Shown one piece after another: positions 25,821-38,552 of a stretch of DNA of 39,362 nt (the stretch's first letter is position 1; every line of letters starts with the position of its first letter). The position numbers and the translations under genes are program-made. The notes below the pieces were generated by a model that was not told the DNA's origin, made no database searches, and saw only the letters and a list, made by a program, of their open reading frames with translations. Source of the DNA: Dehalococcoidia bacterium. GTDB taxonomy: Bacteria; Chloroflexota; Dehalococcoidia; JAUSIH01. The stretch covers positions 1 through 39,362 of the forward strand of contig JAUSIH010000047.1 of NCBI GenBank assembly GCA_030648205.1. The letters are read 5' to 3'.

Positions 25821-25963
25821 GAACCCGCGAGACGCGTTTTTCCGAGCGTTCCTGTCTTTCCAGTCGGGTTCTCCGGCGTCTCCGTGGCGCCATTCCAGTG
25901 TGCAAGTCTGCGGCCTGTCGAGATAACCGGCACGCAATCCAGTACTGTAGGAGGGGGACGGCA

Positions 25964-27706
25964 ATGAAAAACTGGAGCCGCATCGTTGGTCTTGTCGGTC
26001 TGCTAAGTCTTATCGCTGCGGGCTGCGCGCCTGTGGCCCAGCCAGCCTCGGCTCCTGCTCCGGCAGCCGCGCCGCAAGCGGCCCCGACAGTCGTGGCGCC
26101 TGCTGCGCCCGCCGCTCCCGCGGCCCCGGTGCCCGCTCGCGCTACGCCCACGCCTGTCCCTGCGGCTCCGGCTGCGCCGGCGGCCTCGGCGGCGGGCACG
26201 CCGAGGACTGGCGGGCGGCTGAACATGACCCTCTCGTCCGATCCCCAGACTCTGGACGTGAATACGGACGTGGGGATGGACCTGTATGACCTCTCGCGTG
26301 CTCCCTATGACTCGCTCATCATCGTGGACCAGAGGGGCGGGACCATGAAGCTCAGCCCCCGTCTGGCCAGGAGCTGGGAGGTATCGCCTGACGGGAAGAC
26401 CTACACGTTCAAGCTGCGTGATGACGTGGTCTTCCAGAACGGCTCCAAATTCACGTCCGCGGATGTGAAGTTCACTTTGGACCGCTACCGGAATCCGCCC
26501 AAAGATGTGCGCAGCGCCCACGTCGCCAGCCTTCAGCCCGTGGAGTCCGTGGAGGCGCCCGACGCGACGACAGTGGTGATGCGCCTCAAGGCTCCATCCG
26601 GTCCGCTCATGGGCCGTCTGTCCAACCTCAATAGCCTGGTCATGCTCTCCAAGGCATGGGTAGAGGGCGGCGCCAACTCGCTCACGGACATGATGGGGAC
26701 TGGGGCGTTCACGCTCACCAAGGCGACGCGAGGAACGAGCTACACCTTCGACAAGAATCCGAAGTTCTGGCAGCCGGGGAGGCCCTACCTGGACGGGGTG
26801 ACTTATTTTGTCGTCAAGGACGTGGAGACGCGGTTCGCCGCGCTGCGGACGGGTCGCGTGCACACGCTGCAGAACTACTTCGTGCAGCTAAGCCCGGCGC
26901 AGTACCGGGACATGCAGAAGATTCGGCCTGATTTGCAGATGTTCCCAGACGCCATCCGCAAGGCGCCGTGGGTGTGGTTCAACCTGCGCAAGGCCCCCTG
27001 GACAGACGTGCGGGTCAGGCAGGCTATCAACCTGGCGCTGGACCGCCGGGAGGCCGTGCGCTCCCTCTTTGATGGGGCCGGAGAGCTGGGAGACATGTAC
27101 ACCTTTCGCCAGCCGCCGGGAATCTCTCAGGCCGATTTGCTCAAGATGCCGGGCTGGGCGGAGAACAAGAAGGCCGAGCGGGACCAGGCGAAGAAGCTGC
27201 TGGCCGACGCGGGTTTCCCCAACGGCATGCAGGCCACTGTTCTGACACGCGACATAACGGACTTCAAGGACGCATCGGTCTTCTTTGTTGACCAGCTCTC
27301 GACAATTGGCATCAAGGCGACGGTGGAGATTCAGGATACGGGCGTGGTGTTCGCACGCGGGCGCAGCGGCGACTACGACCTGATGGTTCTCCAGAGCACC
27401 GACCTGCGCCCCGACGCCAGCGATGACACGCAGTTGTGGCATCTGAAGGGTGGCGCGGTGAACTTTGGCATCCTGGACGACCCGAAGCTGGTGGCGTTGT
27501 ACCTGGAGCAAGAAGTTATCTCGGACTACGCCGCGCGCCAGAAGGTCGTGGAGAAGATGGACCGCTATATTCAGGACACGCTGCCCTCCCTCCGCATGGG
27601 GTGGAGCTTCGGCTATGATGCGATCGCGCCGGAGGTCATGAACTGGCCCAGGAAGGCGGACGGGCGCGGGCAAGACATTCTTGAACAGGTGTGGCTGTCC
27701 AAATAG
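25964..27706 (+). CDS. Peptide ABC transporter substrate-binding lipoprotein (family 5, DppA/OppA-like)
   Basis: This extracytoplasmic binding protein would deliver peptides, or for some family members nickel or sugars, to the permeases encoded next. The 580-residue protein has a lipoprotein signal with lipobox AAGC (about residue 21) and an Ala/Pro-rich spacer to residue 80. The family-5 landmarks are RSWEVSPDGKTYTFKLRDDVVFQNG and SADVKFTLDRY near 165-170. RVRQAINLALDRREAV, typical of the core, is also present. ATG at 25964 has GGAGGGGG upstream. It is the first gene of an operon with two permeases. Confidence 0.92.
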   Translation: MKNWSRIVGLVGLLSLIAAGCAPVAQPASAPAPAAAPQAAPTVVAPAAPAAPAAPVPARATPTPVPAAPAAPAASAAGTPRTGGRLNMTLSSDPQTLDVNTDVGMDLYDLSRAPYDSLIIVDQRGGTMKLSPRLARSWEVSPDGKTYTFKLRDDVVFQNGSKFTSADVKFTLDRYRNPPKDVRSAHVASLQPVESVEAPDATTVVMRLKAPSGPLMGRLSNLNSLVMLSKAWVEGGANSLTDMMGTGAFTLTKATRGTSYTFDKNPKFWQPGRPYLDGVTYFVVKDVETRFAALRTGRVHTLQNYFVQLSPAQYRDMQKIRPDLQMFPDAIRKAPWVWFNLRKAPWTDVRVRQAINLALDRREAVRSLFDGAGELGDMYTFRQPPGISQADLLKMPGWAENKKAERDQAKKLLADAGFPNGMQATVLTRDITDFKDASVFFVDQLSTIGIKATVEIQDTGVVFARGRSGDYDLMVLQSTDLRPDASDDTQLWHLKGGAVNFGILDDPKLVALYLEQEVISDYAARQKVVEKMDRYIQDTLPSLRMGWSFGYDAIAPEVMNWPRKADGRGQDILEQVWLSK

Positions 27707-27797
27707 CGCCTGATTGCTGATGGGGGGCCGCTTGGGACGGAAGAGCCGCGAGCGGCGCCGCCTCGCATCGGTGAACGTTTCCCGCAGGTGAGGCTCA

Positions 27798-28751
27798 GTG
27801 GCGCAGTACATCATCCGACGCCTCCTTGTCGCCGTCCCCGTCCTCATCGGCGTGTCGCTGGTCATCTTCGGCATCATGCGCGTTCTGCCGGGCGACATCG
27901 CGGAGATCACCATGACCGGCGGGGCCGCCTCCGCCACGACCTCTGACATCGAGCACTTCCGCAAGGCTTTGGGGCTGGACCGTCCCCTCCACGAGCAGTA
28001 CCTGGAGTGGGTGCGCGGCGTGGTGACGCTGGACTTCGGCAAGTCCCTCAAGTCGGGGGCGCCCATCATCCAGGACATTGCTCTCCGCGCGCCGCTGACG
28101 CTGGAGATAGCCGTTCTGACGATGCTCGTCGCTGTCATCCTGGGGCTTCCGACAGGGGTTATCTCCGCCGTGCGTCAGGACACATGGATTGACAACGTGA
28201 CGCGCGTTGCCTCCATCAGCGGCGTGGCGCTGCCCGTACTGTGGACGGGGACTATCGTTGTGCTGGTGCTGTCCACCTGGTTCAACTGGATACCGCCGCT
28301 CGGCTACGAGTCCTTCTGGGATGCGCCGTGGACGAACCTCCAGCAGATATTCTGGCCGTCGCTGGTGCTCGGCTACAACTTCGCGGCCATCGTCTCGCGC
28401 ATGACCCGGTCGTGCATGCTGGAGGTGCTGCGCCAGGACTACATCAGGACGGCCTGGTCGAAGGGTCTTGCGGAGCGGATGGTCCTGTACCGCCACGCCC
28501 TCATCAACGCCATGCTGCCCGTCGTCACCATCATCGGGGTGCAGTTCGGCACCATCCTGGGCGGCACGCTCATCGTGGAGCAGATATTCGTGGTGCCGGG
28601 GCTGGGCAGCCAGCTCATCGAGTCGGTCCAGTTCCGCGACTACCCTATGGTCCAGACGCTTATCTTGCTGATTACCGGGGCGTTTGTCTTCGTGAACCTC
28701 CTGATAGACCTCCTCTATGCGGTCCTGGACCCGCGTATCCGGTACGAGTAA
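27798..28751 (+). CDS. Peptide ABC transporter permease (DppB/OppB type), first copy
   Basis: This 317-residue inner-membrane permease has an N-terminal helix and a periplasmic loop with FRKALGLDRPLHEQYLEWV. A BPD-type transmembrane core follows, with the EAA-like coupling segment EVLRQDYIRTAWSKGLAERMV that contacts the ATPase. It ends in LYAVLDPRIRYE, the usual OppB/DppB ending. The GTG start is preceded by AGGTGAGG. It follows the binding-protein gene by 91 bp and precedes the DppC-type gene by 16 bp. A paralogue with the same layout lies at 36687. No ATPase gene is adjacent. Confidence 0.93.
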   Translation: MAQYIIRRLLVAVPVLIGVSLVIFGIMRVLPGDIAEITMTGGAASATTSDIEHFRKALGLDRPLHEQYLEWVRGVVTLDFGKSLKSGAPIIQDIALRAPLTLEIAVLTMLVAVILGLPTGVISAVRQDTWIDNVTRVASISGVALPVLWTGTIVVLVLSTWFNWIPPLGYESFWDAPWTNLQQIFWPSLVLGYNFAAIVSRMTRSCMLEVLRQDYIRTAWSKGLAERMVLYRHALINAMLPVVTIIGVQFGTILGGTLIVEQIFVVPGLGSQLIESVQFRDYPMVQTLILLITGAFVFVNLLIDLLYAVLDPRIRYE

Positions 28752-28767
28752 CAGGGGACTGTGAGTG

Positions 28768-29661
28768 ATGGAGCTGTCTGAAGACCTGGTCTTGCGCGGG
28801 AGACCCTCGCGGTGGGCCGCCAGGACCGCGGCCGGGGCGTGGCGATTCGCGCGGGCGAAGCCCCTGGGCGCAGTCGGCGGGGTGATAGTCCTCCTATTGA
28901 CGGTGGTGGCCGTCTTTGCCCCGGTCACCGCTCCCTACGACCCCTTGGAGACCCACTATTCGCACCGGGTCGAAGCGCCCGGCGGCGCGTTCCCGCTGGG
29001 GACAGACCACTTTGGACGTGACGTGCTCAGCCGCGTTATCTACGGCGCGCGCACGTCCCTGTTGGTCTCGGTGGTGTCGGTTGCGCTGGGGGCCAGCCTG
29101 GGCGGACTCGTGGGGCTGTACAGCGGCTTCAGAGGCGGCCGCATGGACTTTGTCATCCAGCGGCTGGTGGACGTGGTCGTGGCGTTCCCGCTCCTCGTGC
29201 TGGCGCTGGCGGTGATGGCCGGCCTAGGGACATCGCTGCGGAACGTCATCATCGCGATGGCTATCGTTCTCGCGCCAAGAGCGGCGCGGGTGCTGCGGTC
29301 GAGCGCGCTGGCTTTGCGAGAGGCGGAGTACGTGAGGGCGGCGCGGGCCGTGGGCTGCTCCGGGGCGCGTCAGCTCTTCGTCCACGTCCTGCCCAACTGC
29401 CTGGCGCCCTACATCGTCTTCTCCACCATCTCCGTGGGCGTCGTGATCATCTCCGAGGCGTCGCTGTCGTTCCTGGGGCTGGGCGTGCCGCCGCCCGACC
29501 CGTCCTGGGGGAGCATGCTGGCGCAGGAGGGCTACAAGCTTATGCGCTCCGCGCCGTGGGTGAGCCTGGGGCCGGGCGTCGCCCTGAGTCTTGCGGTGTT
29601 CGGCATCAACCTGCTGGGCGACGCCGTGCGCGACGTGTGGGACCCCCGGCTGCGCCAGTAA
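28768..29661 (+). CDS. Peptide ABC transporter permease (DppC/OppC type), first copy
   Basis: This 297-residue permease partners the preceding DppB-type protein. It has an N-terminal OppC_N-like helix after AKPLGAVGGVIVLLLTVVAVFAPV, then LGTDHFGRDVLSRVIYGARTSL, the family's hallmark. The coupling segment REAEYVRAARAVGCSGARQLF and ASLSFLGLGVPPPDPSWG follow. A GTG one codon earlier (28765) is an alternative start. It is the last transporter gene of this operon; a weak terminator-like hairpin lies 74 bp downstream. Confidence 0.92.
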   Translation: MELSEDLVLRGRPSRWAARTAAGAWRFARAKPLGAVGGVIVLLLTVVAVFAPVTAPYDPLETHYSHRVEAPGGAFPLGTDHFGRDVLSRVIYGARTSLLVSVVSVALGASLGGLVGLYSGFRGGRMDFVIQRLVDVVVAFPLLVLALAVMAGLGTSLRNVIIAMAIVLAPRAARVLRSSALALREAEYVRAARAVGCSGARQLFVHVLPNCLAPYIVFSTISVGVVIISEASLSFLGLGVPPPDPSWGSMLAQEGYKLMRSAPWVSLGPGVALSLAVFGINLLGDAVRDVWDPRLRQ

Positions 29662-29799: not shown

Positions 29800-30453
29800 A
29801 TGCCGAAAGTTCCAGTTTGGGTTAAGCGCGTGTGGGAATGGCTTGCAACGTTGCAAGACGCGCTCGGTGTTTGGACACTTCTCGCTGGCGCATTTGCGTG
29901 GCTTGGGGGAACTGCTTTGATAAGCGCCCTAGCCATAGCCTTTGTTGAAGCCATTCGCTCTAATCTCAACTGGTTTGGACAAGCGTGCTTCGTAATAGGC
30001 GTTGCGCTCCTTTTGCTCGCACCGATTACATATCTAGCCCCTCGCTTTATCAAAGTACCAAAGCAAACGATACCAGCACTACAGAAGCCACAAACGAAAG
30101 TTTACAGTGAAGAGGAAACCACGAAATTTGTTGCTCAGATTGACGAGTATATTGACAAGTTGACTCATTCCAGAGAATCGCTATGGGTAGGCAACCATGA
30201 CCCAGGACAGGAAAGCCAAAGTGTGAATCGGTATTTTGAGTGGATTCAGGAGTGGGCATGGGAGGCGATACCTGAATATGCACAAGTCTTGATTCCAGAC
30301 CGTGTCAAAATGACGGAAGGTGAAATCATGATGTATGTAGGCTGGCCGAACAATACGGCAGCGCTAAGAGTTATAGTTGACCGACAGCTACTCAAATTAC
30401 GACAGGTGAAGGCTCTGCTATTAGGTCACGGTACGGCAAGTTCTCGGCCATGA
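29800..30453 (+). CDS. Orphan two-helix membrane protein (AT-rich, probably acquired)
   Basis: This 217-residue protein has two hydrophobic helices in the N-terminal half (about residues 23-46 and 60-82) with a short loop. A cytosolic helical region follows (EEETTKFVAQIDEYIDKLTHSRESLWVG), then an acidic, Trp-rich end. I recognise no family. Its base composition is clearly AT-richer than the flanking genes, which suggests transfer. The last dozen residues (LLLGHGTASSRP) read into the transposase remnant on the opposite strand. The original 3' end may therefore have been replaced when that element landed. No Shine-Dalgarno sequence is convincing. Confidence 0.6.
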   Translation: MPKVPVWVKRVWEWLATLQDALGVWTLLAGAFAWLGGTALISALAIAFVEAIRSNLNWFGQACFVIGVALLLLAPITYLAPRFIKVPKQTIPALQKPQTKVYSEEETTKFVAQIDEYIDKLTHSRESLWVGNHDPGQESQSVNRYFEWIQEWAWEAIPEYAQVLIPDRVKMTEGEIMMYVGWPNNTAALRVIVDRQLLKLRQVKALLLGHGTASSRP

Positions 30454-30733
30454 GCAACTTCACGAGTGTGTCTCTGAACAGGTACGGATTCTCGCGGTTG
30501 TTGAACCGCCACTCTAGCTCGTCGAGGTAGGCGTCCAGATGCTTGACCGAGACCTTGTGATACGAACCGGCAACCGACCTCTTGAAGAGGCTCCACACAC
30601 ATTCAACGGTATTGGTGTGCACGTCTCCGCGTACCCGTTCCTCAATGCTATGGTGGACTCTCTCGTGTCTCGTGTCTCGTGTCCTGGTCCCCGATGCCCT
30701 CATAAGCGGCGTATTCGGGGGTCGCAAGCTCAT
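30392..30733 (-). pseudogene. ISXO2-like (IS1595-family) transposase remnant
   Basis: The frame ends with a clear C-terminal piece of an ISXO2-like transposase: GDVHTNTVECVWSLFKRSVAG, SVKHLDAYLDELEWRFNNREN and FRDTLVKLL. In the family the NTVE glutamate region closes the catalytic DDE-type site; the two upstream catalytic residues are missing. The visible homology begins near residue 25 (HHSIEERV). The residues before it come from a TCTCGTG triplet repeat (30661-30681) and unrelated sequence. No terminal inverted repeats were found. It overlaps the end of the orphan membrane gene by 62 bp. Not functional. Confidence 0.8.
30661..30681. repeat. Three tandem TCTCGTG heptamers at the transposase break point
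   Basis: Three exact copies of TCTCGTG lie where homology to the transposase stops. Slippage-type repeats at such a junction fit a deletion or illegitimate recombination event. Confidence 0.6.
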
Positions 30734-30746
30734 TTGGGAATAAGCT

Positions 30747-31790
30747 CTAGCCAGAGAGCGCCGCGGGCCTCTCTCCCACCAGCACCGACCATAGCTCCTC
30801 CGGAGTCACGTAGCCGCCCGTTTTTTCCAGCGTGTGGATGAGCCGCACGATGGCCTCGTTGAGCGGCGCGGACGTCCCCGCCGCGCGGGCGGCCTTGACC
30901 ACGTCGCCGTTCAGGAAGTCCACCTCCGTGCTCTTGCCTCGCTTGCGGCTTTGCAGGGTGGAGCTCATGGGCGAGTGGCCGCCGATGAAGACACACAGTT
31001 GGGACAACTCCTTCGGGATGTCTGGCTGCTGGGTCATGGGCGGCAGCTTTTCGAGGGCCGCCACGGCCTCCAGCGGAATGCCCTCCACGGGCGCCAGCCG
31101 AACGCCTGCGGCCTCCGCGACGCGCGCCGTCTCCTGGACCAGCGCCATGCCCAGAACGACCATGTCCTTGCGTTTGCCGCACTCCTGCATGGAGAGTCCC
31201 GTCGCGGCCTGCACGGCGGCCTGGACGTTGTAGAGCAGCTTGGTCCACCGCGCGCCGACGATGTTGTCCGTCAGCTTTGTCTGAATGCCGGCGTTGAGCG
31301 TCTCCGCGACGCGCCGCGTGACCGGCCCGTTGGGCTGGAACGACTGGCCGATGAGCAGCCGGCCCGCGCTGTGCCGGACGATGACGCCGGGCTCAAGGTA
31401 CACCATGCCGAAGCGCACGATGCACCCGATGATGTTCTCCCGGCCCAGGATGTCGCCAGCGATGGCGTCGCCGCTGATGCCGTTCTGCATCATCACGGCG
31501 GGCACGCCGCGCGCGTACGGCAGCGATTCCCGGCAGGCCTCGGCCACGTCCTGGGCCTTGGTGGCGACGACGAGGATGTCGGGCGTGAAGGTGAGCCGTT
31601 CCGCGGCGGGAATGCGGAGGGCCACCTTGCGCCGCGCCTCCGGGCGGACGTCGTCCATAATCAGGCCGCGCTGATTGATGGCCGCTACGTGGGCTGGTCT
31701 CCCCACCAGCGTGACGTCAAGCCCCGCCTGGTGCAGCAACGCGCCCACGCCGCTGCCAATTGCGCCCGCGCCCACGATTACGATCTTCAT
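30747..31790 (-). CDS. PanE/ApbA-family 2-dehydropantoate 2-reductase-like protein
   Basis: PanE reduces ketopantoate to pantoate with NADPH in coenzyme A synthesis, but the family also contains reductases of other 2-oxo acids. The 347-residue protein has the nucleotide-binding MKIVIVGAGAIGSGVGALLHQAG (GxGxxG at 7-12). It also has VGRPAHVAAIN, a KAQD motif after the Rossmann sheet, and the C-terminal catalytic helix ARWTKLLYNVQAAVQAATG with the lysine. It is the last gene of the UGSC operon, 31 bp after the 380-residue gene. It may therefore act in that unknown pathway rather than in pantothenate synthesis. Confidence 0.87.
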   Translation of the reverse strand: MKIVIVGAGAIGSGVGALLHQAGLDVTLVGRPAHVAAINQRGLIMDDVRPEARRKVALRIPAAERLTFTPDILVVATKAQDVAEACRESLPYARGVPAVMMQNGISGDAIAGDILGRENIIGCIVRFGMVYLEPGVIVRHSAGRLLIGQSFQPNGPVTRRVAETLNAGIQTKLTDNIVGARWTKLLYNVQAAVQAATGLSMQECGKRKDMVVLGMALVQETARVAEAAGVRLAPVEGIPLEAVAALEKLPPMTQQPDIPKELSQLCVFIGGHSPMSSTLQSRKRGKSTEVDFLNGDVVKAARAAGTSAPLNEAIVRLIHTLEKTGGYVTPEELWSVLVGERPAALSG

Positions 31791-31821: not shown

Positions 31822-32964
31822 CTACGACCCCGCGGCCTTCTTGAAGTCCTCCACCGACCTGGCGTGCGTCCCGTTCTTCAGCGCGATGGGCTTGGTGACG
31901 GACTTGGTGGTGGCGAACGTGGGAATGTAGATACCTTGCGCGGGGAGCAGCCCGCCCATGCACACGATGAGGAAGTCCTCTGGCCTCTGGACGAGCGTGA
32001 GCCGGTCAACCTTCTTCGGGTCCACCTGCCGCCGCTTCGCCATGCGCTCGATGACCCACGGCGCGAGCGTGTCGTAGGTGCGCGTGGTGACATCGAACAT
32101 ATATTGGCGTATCTGCGGCTTGTCGAAGCCGTCGCGGTGCAATATCTGCGCCGACTCCGGTGGGAACACGAGCATCGGCTCGCCGAAGCCCATCATCCAG
32201 ATGTTGGTCCCCATGCCGTACGCCGATTCTCCCATGAAGTAGAGTATCTCTTCGCCCTCCGTCACGGGGCTGCCGCCGCACTCCGGCACGGTGATGACGT
32301 TGTGCGTGCCTGACGCGCCGTCCACGGTCACCGTGCTGCTCTCTTTGGGGAAGCCGCGTTCCACGTGGAACGGCTCCCAGGGGCTTTCCAGTTCGTTCTC
32401 GGCGGAGCAGAAGTTGTACTTGCCGGGAAAGCCGTGGGTGGCCCTGTCGGTGGTGCCTGGCGCTCCGCCGCCGACGTTCAGCAGCAGCAGGCGCGCGGCG
32501 CGGCCAATGGTGGCGTTGGCCCGCCAGCCCGGTCCGAGGCAGCCGGCGCCGGCGTTCATGCCGATCTCGCGGGAGATGGGGCCGTTCACGAGCACGAACG
32601 GCGTCACCGGATTGGTCGTCCCCTGAATGCCGTGCAGGTTGAATTCCTTCTCGCCCAGCGCCTGGGTCATCGCGACGACGACGGGGAAGTACTCCGGACG
32701 GCATCCCGCCATGACGGCGTTGATGGCCACCTTCTCGACAGTCGCGTCGGCGTAGGATGTCGCCAACTCGCAGAGCACGTCGTCGGGCTTGCGGTCGGTG
32801 TATTCCAGCATCCGCGCAATGCGCTCGTCGGTGGGCGGAATGATCGGCAGGCCGTCCGTCCAGCCCTTGTCGTAGAAGGACTCAAAGGTGGCCTCGACGT
32901 TCAGCTCCTGGTCGGCGGCCTCCACGCGGTGGGTGGCGGATGTGAGGCGTGCGTTCACGGTCAT
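31822..32964 (-). CDS. Conserved 380-residue protein of the UGSC operon, function unknown
   Basis: I do not recognise an established function for this protein. It has no signal peptide or membrane helix and looks like a cytosolic, mixed alpha/beta enzyme. The conserved-looking blocks are YDKGWTDGLPIIPPTDERI, AVMAGCRPEYFPVVVAM, MNAGAGCLGPGWRANATIGR, HGFPGKYNFCSAENE and VPECGGSPVTEGEE. Glycines and at least five cysteines cluster there. The ATG at 32964 has AGGAG 6 nt upstream, and this site overlaps the stop codon of the UGSC gene (TAGGAG), showing tight coupling. Its partnership with a UGSC protein is the best clue to its role. Confidence 0.78.
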   Translation of the reverse strand: MTVNARLTSATHRVEAADQELNVEATFESFYDKGWTDGLPIIPPTDERIARMLEYTDRKPDDVLCELATSYADATVEKVAINAVMAGCRPEYFPVVVAMTQALGEKEFNLHGIQGTTNPVTPFVLVNGPISREIGMNAGAGCLGPGWRANATIGRAARLLLLNVGGGAPGTTDRATHGFPGKYNFCSAENELESPWEPFHVERGFPKESSTVTVDGASGTHNVITVPECGGSPVTEGEEILYFMGESAYGMGTNIWMMGFGEPMLVFPPESAQILHRDGFDKPQIRQYMFDVTTRTYDTLAPWVIERMAKRRQVDPKKVDRLTLVQRPEDFLIVCMGGLLPAQGIYIPTFATTKSVTKPIALKNGTHARSVEDFKKAAGS

Positions 32965-32973
32965 CAGGGACTC

Positions 32974-33528
32974 CTATTTGACTGGCTTTGTTTCGATGGG
33001 GTGCTGGAGCATCTGCGCTATCCTGTCCACCGTCCGCGGCGCGTCCTTCGAGTTCAGGGGCCAGGGGACCTCGATGATGGCGAGCTTCTCGATGCCCATG
33101 GTCCTGGCCGTGGAGCGTCCGAGTGCGGAGAAAGGCGCGGAGTTGAGGCTTATCACGGCCGCGCCAGCCTTCTCAAGGGATACGCCGTCGTGGATACACC
33201 ACGTGGTGCAGGAGCCTCAGACGCCCATACCGTTGATGACCAGGTCCGCCCTGGACGCCAGCTCCTTGACGAGCTCGTCCGGCGCGCCCTGGCCGGTCAT
33301 GGTGCGGAACTTCTCCCGGTGGAAGACCTGAGTAACGCCATAGCGCTCCTTGAGGACGCGCTCCATCTGGTTGTAGAAGTCCTGGATGCGGACACCCAAT
33401 CCGGACCCGTCGTTGTTCAGGAATGCGACCGTCTTCCCCTTCAGGTTGGTGGGCAGCGGGTTGGTCTTGCGCTGCGCCTTGTGGGTCGGGGCCGTCGGGT
33501 CGCGGAACAGGGCGAAGTGGTTGGCCAT
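32974..33528 (-). CDS. UGSC-family selenoprotein (in-frame TGA read as selenocysteine)
   Basis: The frame runs 184 residues from ATG at 33528 to TAG at 32976, crossed by one in-frame TGA at 33219-33217 (codon 104). With the TGA as selenocysteine the sequence there reads VINGMGV-U-GSCTTWCIHDG, giving the U-x-x-C redox motif that names the UGSC (seleno)protein family; other members have CGSC. The motif follows a hydrophobic strand (ADLVING) and precedes a helix, as in redox proteins. Protein-like sequence continues on both sides: KTVAFLNNDGSGLGVRIQDFY before, ISLNSAPFSALGRSTARTMGIEKLAIIEVPWPL after. A strong AAGGAGGGAG site precedes the start. A small hairpin downstream could be a SECIS element. 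Selenium genes are not in the window. An assembly error or a Cys variant cannot be excluded. Confidence 0.82.
33189..33203 (-). promoter_or_regulatory. Candidate SECIS hairpin after the UGA codon
   Basis: On the minus strand, CGTGG-TGTAT-CCACG forms a 5-bp stem with a 5-nt loop. It starts 13 nt after the UGA, and its loop starts 18 nt after it. The second loop base is G, which fits the loose bacterial SECIS pattern. An overlapping alternative, TGCACC-ACGT-GGTGTA, also folds. The stem is short, so support is modest. Confidence 0.4.
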
Positions 33529-33604
33529 AGTGCTCCCTCCTTGGTTGAGAAAGGTCAAAGGCCCGTGCGCCATCCCTCACGGGCGGCATGGCGCGCACGT
33601 TCCG

Positions 33605-33634
33605 ACTATACGTGTCTGCGTTCGCTTCTGTCAA
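33605..33634 (-). promoter_or_regulatory. Promoter of the UGSC operon
   Basis: On the minus strand, a perfect TTGACA (33634-33629), an 18-bp spacer and TATAGT (33610-33605). The leader is about 70 nt and leads to the AAGGAGGGAG site of the selenoprotein gene. Confidence 0.65.
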
Positions 33635-36644: not shown

Positions 36645-36686
36645 ATCAGCTTGAATTGACATCCTTGACGCTGGTTGGAGAGCGGC

Positions 36687-37646
36687 ATGGCGTCCTATTT
36701 GGCCAACCGGGTGCTCCTGTTCATACCGGTGCTTCTCGCGGTGTCCATCTTTGTGTTCCTGGTGCTGCGGGTTATTCCAGGAGACGTGGCTGTGCTGCGC
36801 CTTACGGGGACCTCGGGCGAGGGCGTCGTCACGCCGGAGGCGCTCGCCGAGGTGCGCCGCCAGTTGGGGACCGACCGGCCGCTAGGGGAGCAATACCTGA
36901 CGTGGATGGCGAGCGTGGTCCGTCTGAACGGGGGCGCCTCCATGAGGACAGGAGAGCCCGCATTCCAGATCATCGCGCTGCGGCTTCCCGTGACGCTGGA
37001 GCTTGCGGTCATCAGCCTGCTGGTTGCCCTGCTCATCTCCCTGCCCGCGGGCATCCTGAGCGCGGTGCGCCAGAACACCTGGATGGACTACGTTGTCCGC
37101 GTGGTCAGCATCGGCGGGCTGTCCATGCCCACGTTCTGGACGGCTATTCTGCTGCTGCTGTTTTTCGTCTACGTTCTGAATTGGATGCCCCCCCTGGCCT
37201 ATGTCTCCCTGGCCCAGGACCCCGGCGCGAACATGCTCCAGATGGTCTGGCCCGCGCTTATCCTGGGGTATTACATGTCGGCGGGGGTGACGCGCATGAC
37301 TCGCTCCTGCATGCTGGAGGTGCTGCGCCAGGACTACGTGCGCACCGCGTGGTCCAAGGGCCTGTCGGAGCGGCTGGTGGTGCTGCGACATGTGGTGCGG
37401 AACGGGCTGCTCCCGGTCGTCACCATCGTGGGCGTCCAGTTTGGGCATCTTTTGGGCGGCGCCATCATCATGGAGACCATCTTCGCCCTTCCGGGCATGG
37501 GAGTTAACCTCATTGAGTCCATCCGCGAGCGGGACTACACGATGATCCAGTCCATCGTACTGCTCCTGTCCGTATGGTTCCTGGTCATCAACCTGCTGGT
37601 TGACGTCTTGTACGCCTGGCTCGACCCGCGCGTCCGTTACAGTTAG
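36687..37646 (+). CDS. Peptide ABC transporter permease (DppB/OppB type), second copy
   Basis: This 319-residue permease is a clear paralogue of the one at 27798. It shares the helix-loop start, the EQYLTWMASVVRLNG block, MLEVLRQDYVRTAWSKGLSERLVVLRH (EAA-like coupling segment) and the YAWLDPRVRYS ending. The ATG at 36687 is preferred because GGAG lies 6 nt upstream; a TTG four codons earlier is the alternative. It has its own promoter and overlaps no other gene. The two DppB copies have clearly diverged, so the duplication is not recent. The ATPases it needs are outside the window. Confidence 0.92.
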   Translation: MASYLANRVLLFIPVLLAVSIFVFLVLRVIPGDVAVLRLTGTSGEGVVTPEALAEVRRQLGTDRPLGEQYLTWMASVVRLNGGASMRTGEPAFQIIALRLPVTLELAVISLLVALLISLPAGILSAVRQNTWMDYVVRVVSIGGLSMPTFWTAILLLLFFVYVLNWMPPLAYVSLAQDPGANMLQMVWPALILGYYMSAGVTRMTRSCMLEVLRQDYVRTAWSKGLSERLVVLRHVVRNGLLPVVTIVGVQFGHLLGGAIIMETIFALPGMGVNLIESIRERDYTMIQSIVLLLSVWFLVINLLVDVLYAWLDPRVRYS

Positions 37647-37655
37647 GAGGCGAGC

Positions 37656-38552
37656 GTGGAGGCGCATGAACAGGTAGCGTACCCTGACCTGCCGGCGCGG
37701 GCGCGGTCTTCCTGGCCCGCCGCCCTGTGGGCGTTCTGCCGGGCCAAGCCACTGGGCGCCGTGGGGGCGCTTCTGGTGGCCTGTGTCACGCTGGCGGCCC
37801 TCCTGTCGCCCGTGCTTGCCCCCTTTGACCCTTTTGAGTTGCACCGGCGCGCCACGTTCCTCGCGCCTGGCGGCATATACACGATGGGGACCGATAACAT
37901 GGGCCGCGATGTGCTCAGTCGGGTCATCTGGGGCTCTCAGCTGTCCATCTTGGTGGGCGTTCTGTCCGTAGCCCTGGGAACGGTGGTGGGCGGGCTGCTG
38001 GGACTGGTGAGCGGCTACTTTGGCGGCGCTACGGACATGACGGTGCAGCGATGCATGGACGCCCTGCTCGCATTCCCCACGCTGGTGCTCGCGCTGATGG
38101 TCGTGGCCGTGCTCGGTCCGTCCGCGGGCAACATCATCATTGCGATTGCGATCGTTCTGCTGCCCCAGGCGGCGCGCGTCGTCCGCTCCAGCGTGCTGTC
38201 CATCAAGGCGCATGAGTACATCACCGCCGCGCGGGCCATGGGTTCCGGCAACTGGCGCATTCTGTGGCGGCACGTTCTGCCCAACTCTCTGGCCCCGTTC
38301 ATCATCGTGGCGACAACCGCCCTGGGCTGGGCTGTCATCGTGGAGGCCAGCCTGAGCTTCCTGGGCCTCGGCCCTCCTCCTCCGTTCGTGTCCTGGGGCA
38401 CCATGCTCGCCGAGGGTGGGCGGGAGTATCTGAACAAGGCCCCGTGGATGGCTATTTTCCCTGGTATCGCGCTGAGCGTCGCCGTGTTCGGCGTGAATCT
38501 TTTCGGCGACGCCCTCCGCGATGTGCTGGACCCGCGCCTGCGCGGCAGCTAG
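37656..38552 (+). CDS. Peptide ABC transporter permease (DppC/OppC type), second copy
   Basis: This 298-residue permease pairs with the preceding gene, 9 bp upstream. The hallmark MGTDNMGRDVLSRVIWGSQLSI, the coupling segment KAHEYITAARAMGSGNWRILW and ASLSFLGLGPPPPFVSWGTM are all present, and the end DPRLRGS matches DppC. The GTG start has TAGGAGG 5 nt upstream. It is the paralogue of the gene at 28768. A lipoprotein gene follows after 154 bp with its own promoter. Confidence 0.92.
   Translation: MEAHEQVAYPDLPARARSSWPAALWAFCRAKPLGAVGALLVACVTLAALLSPVLAPFDPFELHRRATFLAPGGIYTMGTDNMGRDVLSRVIWGSQLSILVGVLSVALGTVVGGLLGLVSGYFGGATDMTVQRCMDALLAFPTLVLALMVVAVLGPSAGNIIIAIAIVLLPQAARVVRSSVLSIKAHEYITAARAMGSGNWRILWRHVLPNSLAPFIIVATTALGWAVIVEASLSFLGLGPPPPFVSWGTMLAEGGREYLNKAPWMAIFPGIALSVAVFGVNLFGDALRDVLDPRLRGS

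What the first reader, a model, noticed from the sequence alone, without database searches (positions are those of the whole stretch)
32974..33528. UGSC selenoprotein hidden by an in-frame TGA
Two apparently separate short frames on the minus strand are the same frame, split only by TGA at 33219-33217. Reading through gives U-G-S-C-T-T-W-C after a hydrophobic strand, the motif that names the UGSC (seleno)protein family, and coding quality continues smoothly on both sides. The start has a very strong Shine-Dalgarno site and a TTGACA/TATAGT promoter. The next gene begins at the true TAG stop, not at the TGA. Standard annotation would call a truncated protein or pseudogene.
Basis: partly seen in the sequence, partly recalled or inferred. 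Interest (0 to 1): 0.85.

Follow-up and report, generated by a model that had tools for sequence, protein, structure and literature searches.

The report
UGSC selenoprotein from hugely expanded family
The gene is a real selenocysteine-containing protein that ordinary annotation would cut in half, and it is one of at least 41 such copies in this bacterium (a relative has well over 140), which together look like a large set of selenium enzymes, each probably handling a different imported nutrient.

Summary
Confirmed. The minus-strand frame 33528-32974 encodes 184 residues with one in-frame TGA (33219-33217), at the U of U-G-S-C. The product matches Pfam UGSC (E 1e-35). The genome has selA, selB, selD and tRNA-Sec(UCA). 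A short hairpin 14-28 nt after the UGA is kept by synonymous covariation in three sets of sequences (0 of 2000 synonymous shuffles as good for the whole stem): SECIS-like selection on the RNA.

The larger finding lies outside the given coordinates. The window's 2.7 Mb genome (Dehalococcoidia/Chloroflexota) has 41 UGSC genes with TGA at exactly this codon. A relative (JACPQD01) has at least 146, by a combined count about 159. The literature record for a whole bacterial selenoproteome is 63. Nearly every UGSC gene is next to, or fused with, an uncharacterised ~380-aa partner without Pfam, NCBIfam or PDB relative, often beside a solute-binding protein.

UGSC is predicted flavodoxin/Rossmann-like, not thioredoxin-like. 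Once GrdB is read through its own Sec codon, it is detectably related to the Sec domain of glycine/proline reductase (HHalign 96%; 89% with the motif masked). Best reading: a GrdB-like Sec nucleophile with a new substrate subunit, diversified over many substrates. The chemistry is inferred.

The parts
32974..33528 (-). UGSC selenoprotein gene, 184 aa, stop TAG
   Evidence: 41 own paralogues with TGA at the same codon; model pLDDT 89
33217..33219 (-). in-frame TGA = Sec104 of the U-G-S-C motif
33189..33203 (-). SECIS-like hairpin (five-pair stem, five-base loop) 14-28 nt after the UGA
   Evidence: wobble covariation beyond synonymous shuffles in three sets; folds alone at -7 kcal/mol, z -1.94
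33536..33542 (-). Shine-Dalgarno AAGGAGG, 7 nt before the ATG
   Evidence: sequence; similar sites before most paralogues
33605..33634 (-). promoter-like TTGACA-18-TATAGT
   Evidence: not above chance by count
31822..32964 (-). partner protein, 380 aa, uncharacterised family found beside or fused with most UGSC genes
30747..31790 (-). ketopantoate reductase-like (PanE/ApbA) gene, same strand, 31 bp after the partner; likely operon member
25898..29661 (+). SBP_bac_5 solute-binding protein (25898-27706) and two Opp/Dpp-type permeases (27798-28751, 28765-29661), convergent with the UGSC operon
36675..38552 (+). second Opp/Dpp-type permease pair on the other side of the operon

Best explanation
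The TGA at 33219-33217 is read as selenocysteine by the SelA/B/C/D machinery, directed by the hairpin just downstream (strongly supported, about 0.97). The product is a flavodoxin/Rossmann-like domain with Sec104 at the start of a helix and Cys107 next to it, remotely related to the Sec domain of GrdB/PrdB. It works with the 380-aa partner as a two-component enzyme: the partner supplies most of the substrate pocket, Sec attacks a carbon or heteroatom of an organic substrate, and Cys107 resolves and recycles the selenium, giving reductive cleavage as in glycine, proline or fluoroacetate reductase. Tens to over a hundred diverged copies, often next to a solute-binding protein, give one cell many such enzymes for different imported substrates. 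Shown: the frame, TGA conservation, Sec machinery, RNA covariation, partner linkage, solute-binding-protein association, remote GrdB similarity. Inferred: complex formation, Sec as nucleophile, reductive chemistry, one substrate per pair.
For: Sec. Expansion. Partner linkage and natural fusions. Sec at a helix N-terminus in a flavodoxin-like fold. GrdB relation: HHalign 96.2%, E 2e-9; UxxC masked 88.7%, E 3e-6; decoys at most 2.7%. Binding-protein association: 101 of 125 in G027, density 18.6 against 3.3 per 100 kb in controls; TctC instead at 16 loci of other phyla. Catabolic neighbours. GrdB/GrdE paralogues known to be substrate-specific, one for fluoroacetate: PMC10838667.
Against: No substrate, activity or complex has been shown. 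The partner is not homologous to GrdE or to the rest of GrdB, so the two-component analogy rests on gene arrangement. HHalign covers only 67 columns and E-values are for a single comparison. Pfam GRDB does not match UGSC. The own genome has no GrdB match, and the common reductase (GrdA/C/D) was not looked for. The binding-protein link is weaker in the own genome (18 of 43 within 3 kb).
Confidence: 0.55

Rival explanations
1. Sec is real, but UGSC is a general thiol/selenol oxidoreductase (peroxidase, repair or disulfide reductase) using UxxC as many selenoproteins do, and the paralogues serve different electron or protein partners.
For: UxxC is a common redox motif, and the family was first described as a likely Trx-like redox protein (PMC2398784).
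Against: The model is flavodoxin/Rossmann-like, not Trx-like. A fixed large partner, binding-protein association and catabolic neighbours fit substrate metabolism better; 41 to 150 antioxidant copies would be odd.
Confidence: 0.2
2. Sec is real and the pair is an enzyme, but not reductive: a lyase, racemase, isomerase or transferase using Sec as a covalent catalyst.
For: Neighbours include Lar_N, PrpD, enoyl-CoA hydratase and HMGL-like genes; no dedicated electron donor was found beside the pair.
Against: The resolving Cys at U+3 is conserved in 97% of the aligned domains, which suggests redox cycling of selenium; GrdB relatives are reductases.
Confidence: 0.2
3. The TGA is a true stop or an assembly error and the gene is a pseudogene or two short proteins.
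For: Standard annotation would read it so; no reads were available.
Against: 41 genes with the same codon, RNA-level covariation, all Sec genes present, and sequence past the TGA conserved in other phyla.
Confidence: 0.02

Closest known systems
UGSC family (seleno)protein (PF24696, NF041046; GOS 'UGSC-containing protein', PMC2398784)
   Same: Family profile, U-G-S-C motif, Sec at that site; a fusion with an unknown domain was already reported in 2008.
   Different: A divergent member (84 of 125 bits in NCBIfam); earlier counts were about 33 genes in 26 organisms (PMC5029168), against 41 in this genome alone; the predicted fold is not Trx-like; partner, binding-protein and GrdB links were not found in the papers searched.
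GrdB/PrdB Sec subunits of glycine and D-proline reductase, and FarB of fluoroacetate reductase
   Same: UxxC after a strand, related by profile; a Sec subunit paired with a second subunit; substrate-specific paralogues.
   Different: UGSC is half the length and lacks the GrdB N-terminal part; the partner is unrelated to GrdE; chemistry untested.
Largest reported bacterial selenoproteomes (Olavius algarvensis Delta 1 symbiont, 57; a Methylomirabilota MAG, 63; PMC13188914)
   Same: Very many selenoprotein genes in one genome.
   Different: Here a single family gives 41 (own) and at least 146 (G027) Sec genes, without near-identical copies among those examined.

Membership tests
UGSC family (PF24696) | Profile match above the curated cut-off | tested here: met
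   123.9 bits against 25
UGSC family, NCBIfam equivalog NF041046 | Score of at least 125 bits | tested here: not met
   84.1 bits: divergent member, not the equivalog
UGSC family (PF24696) | U/C-G-x-C motif after a hydrophobic strand | tested here: met
Bacterial selenoproteins | Complete Sec machinery in the genome | tested here: met
   selA, selB, selD, tRNA-Sec UCA
Bacterial selenoproteins | Stem-loop (SECIS) just downstream of the UGA | tested here: met
   Synonymous covariation in three sets; folding energy alone inconclusive
Bacterial selenoproteins | Sec in the purified protein | not testable with these tools
   Needs mass spectrometry or 75Se labelling
GrdB/PrdB (PF07355) | Match to the Pfam GRDB profile | tested here: not met
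   No GRDB match in 29 members at E up to 10; the GRDB matches in related genomes stop at or before the Sec codon
GrdB/PrdB (PF07355) | Homologous Sec domain | tested here: met
   HHalign 96.2%, 88.7% with motif masked, decoys at most 2.7%; remote, 67 columns
GrdB/PrdB (PF07355) | Paired with a GrdE/PrdA-type subunit | tested here: not met
   Partner unrelated
Thioredoxin-fold selenoproteins | Trx fold | tested here: not met
   Rossmann/flavodoxin-type model, pLDDT 89; no Trx-fold protein among the matches shown

The most novel reading that the evidence does not exclude
UGSC plus partner is an unrecognised superfamily of Sec-dependent reductases, a second solution to the GrdB/GrdE problem with a new substrate subunit, multiplied to between 41 and more than 150 enzymes per genome in some Dehalococcoidia, so that reductive breakdown of many organic compounds in these cells runs on selenium. 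These genomes would hold the largest selenoproteomes known.
Probability: 0.45. Interest if true: 0.9.

Novelty: new variant of a known kind. Interest (0 to 1): 0.74.

Why it matters
It ties an abundant aquatic selenoprotein family of unknown function to a testable enzyme class (GrdB-like) and a fixed partner. One MAG appears to exceed the reported selenoproteome record with this single family, and the window's own genome comes close to it. Standard annotation hides this: UGSC frames are cut at the UGA, and the GrdB matches also stop at their Sec codon, which may be why the relation has gone unseen.

Tried and rejected
A fold-energy test of the SECIS against synonymous recoding was not convincing (mean z -0.43, no different from upstream control windows); covariation at wobble positions was the better test. 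Sequence searches of the PDB with UGSC and fusion profiles found no convincing relative. GrdB frames first compared with TGA as a stop, partly on the wrong strand, gave no match; with read-through they did. Partner as GrdE homologue: rejected. Pseudogene and genome-wide TGA reassignment: rejected. Co-assembly of strains as the cause of the copy number: no pair over 95% nucleotide identity in the copies examined. tRNA-Sec in G027 was not found: only 150 of 734 candidates were scored and 1.07 Mb was checked by ARAGORN; selA and selB are there. A recurrent neighbour ORF (first cluster) looked like an antisense shadow of the partner and was dropped.

Full report
The observation. On the minus strand, 33528-32974 is one frame of 184 residues with a single in-frame TGA at 33219-33217 and a TAG stop. 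Pfam UGSC matches residues 10-175 at E 9.5e-36; the stricter NCBIfam equivalog scores 84 of 125 bits, so this is a divergent member. The parts before and after the TGA align separately to the same three relatives, in the same frame, with exactly one codon between. The Shine-Dalgarno site is good; the promoter is only a consensus match, not above chance by count.

Sec insertion. The genome (2.69 Mb, 120 contigs, 95% complete) has selA (564 bits), selB (351), selD (366, itself with an in-frame TGA) and a tRNA-Sec with anticodon UCA. TGA also ends other long ORFs (30 of 143), so it does not look reassigned throughout. Downstream of the UGA a five-pair stem around a five-base loop (33203-33189) is kept across paralogues. 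Codons were shuffled only among sequences with the same amino acid at that position: stem pairing exceeded all 2000 shuffles in 41 own copies, 120 copies of G027 and 66 copies from other genomes. Of the pairs in which both bases are third codon positions, (17,23) gave 0 of 2000 in each set and (14,26) gave 0, 0 and 4 of 2000; a wobble pair just outside the stem, (11,29), showed no excess. This is selection on RNA beyond the protein sequence. The folding energy as a whole is unremarkable.

The expansion. A search with the protein found 42 places in the genome. In 41 the TGA falls exactly at the U of U-G-x-C; the other is cut by a contig end. The Pfam profile gives 46 matches; one further copy has lost the motif (L029 fusion) and the rest were not examined one by one. 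Searched alone, G027 gave 150 matches (the scoring limit) of 208 candidates, 146 with in-frame TGA. In 40 fetched stretches of it I found 125 domains, 119 with U-G-x-C; adding 40 rows that lie outside those stretches (counted by hand) gives about 159. G027 is JACPQD01, a groundwater Chloroflexi MAG, by matching contig lengths; completeness 96, contamination 7. No two examined copies exceed 95% nucleotide identity, so strain mixing does not explain the number. A 2026 review gives 63 selenoprotein genes as the largest bacterial set (PMC13188914). In a tree of 245 domains the window copy sits with one own paralogue and two G027 copies (support 99), and own and G027 copies are interleaved (at least 12 changes forced), so much of the diversification is older than the two lineages or was exchanged. 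The window's class is inferred from named members of the same class (Dehalococcoidia and Chloroflexi records); its own record carries no name.

The partner. Almost every own UGSC gene has a homologue of the window's 380-aa downstream gene beside it or fused to its C-terminus. It has no Pfam, NCBIfam or PDB relative. This is probably the 'Unknown_1' fusion domain of Zhang and Gladyshev 2008 (PMC2398784), but I had no sequence to check that. A natural fusion folds with mean pLDDT 93.7 and pTM 0.93; its model has no PDB match at E below 0.001, so the partner domain may be a new fold. Outside Chloroflexota the pair occurs in Beta- and Deltaproteobacteria, Rokubacteria, Actinobacteria and Acidobacteria, nearly always with TGA (77 U and 1 C among 91 domains at first pass; most of the 13 unclassified also show U).

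Context. In G027, 101 of 125 UGSC genes have an SBP_bac_5 solute-binding protein within 3 kb, 98 on the same strand; density is 18.6 per 100 kb against 3.3 in 398 kb of UGSC-free stretches, while permeases are scarce. In other phyla TctC-type binding proteins take that place at 16 loci. Other neighbours are catabolic: CoA-transferase III, enoyl-CoA hydratase, PrpD, HMGL-like, glycyl radical enzymes. In the window, a binding protein with two permeases lies on one side and another permease pair on the other. The association is weaker in the window's own genome (18 of 43 within 3 kb).

Fold and family. The UGSC model (pLDDT 89) is an alternating alpha/beta fold with Sec104 just before helix 105-120, closest but only weakly to flavin azoreductases; it is not thioredoxin-like. 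Pfam's GRDB model does not match UGSC, but the GrdB frames it finds end at a TGA. Read through it, they continue as in L228, DAALLVAT-U-GSCNRCG, and HHalign joins them to UGSC with 96.2% probability (E 2e-9, one comparison) over 67 columns; masking UxxC leaves 88.7%; reversed, shuffled and unrelated profiles give at most 2.7%. The partner is not GrdB- or GrdE-like.

Mechanism. GrdB/GrdE-type reductases are thought to attack substrate carbon with Sec while the complex binds the substrate, and paralogues differ in substrate, including fluoroacetate (PMC10838667). I propose the same logic here with a different second subunit. That step is inference; the alternatives are general redox activity and non-reductive catalysis.

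Verdict. The single gene is a new member of a known family; the expansion, fixed partner, binding-protein association and GrdB relation make the system a new variant of a known kind and of real interest.

Noticed in passing
L225-L244, L193-L195: GrdB matches in Chloroflexota end at an in-frame TGA, so a GrdB-type family with U-G-x-C or U-P-x-C motifs is cut at the Sec codon by the Pfam model's matches; searches with it miss the Sec domain.
   Followed up: partly
L096 (G027:C101:30937-31443): One G027 UGSC fusion reads UGTU: a second in-frame TGA replaces the resolving Cys, suggesting two Sec in the motif.
   Followed up: no
L096, L099, L108 (G027): A fusion subfamily has SGVW/SGVY in place of UGSC, without Sec or the Cys at +3; possibly a non-catalytic or altered paralogue group.
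   Followed up: no
fetched stretches of G000 and G027: TAG is the commonest stop of long ORFs (75 of 143 own, 166 of 307 G027) although GC3 is over 0.7, where TGA would be expected to lead; perhaps avoidance of UGA stops in Sec-rich genomes.
   Followed up: no
window 30395-30733 (-): Remnant of an IS1595/ISXO2-type transposase between the UGSC operon and the transporter genes.
   Followed up: partly
G000:C53:41321-42244: selD has one in-frame TGA and is probably itself a selenoprotein.
   Followed up: no
G027, 40 fetched stretches (L073-L112): Over 100 SBP_bac_5 binding-protein matches with almost no permease genes nearby: an orphan solute-binding-protein expansion parallel to UGSC.
   Followed up: partly
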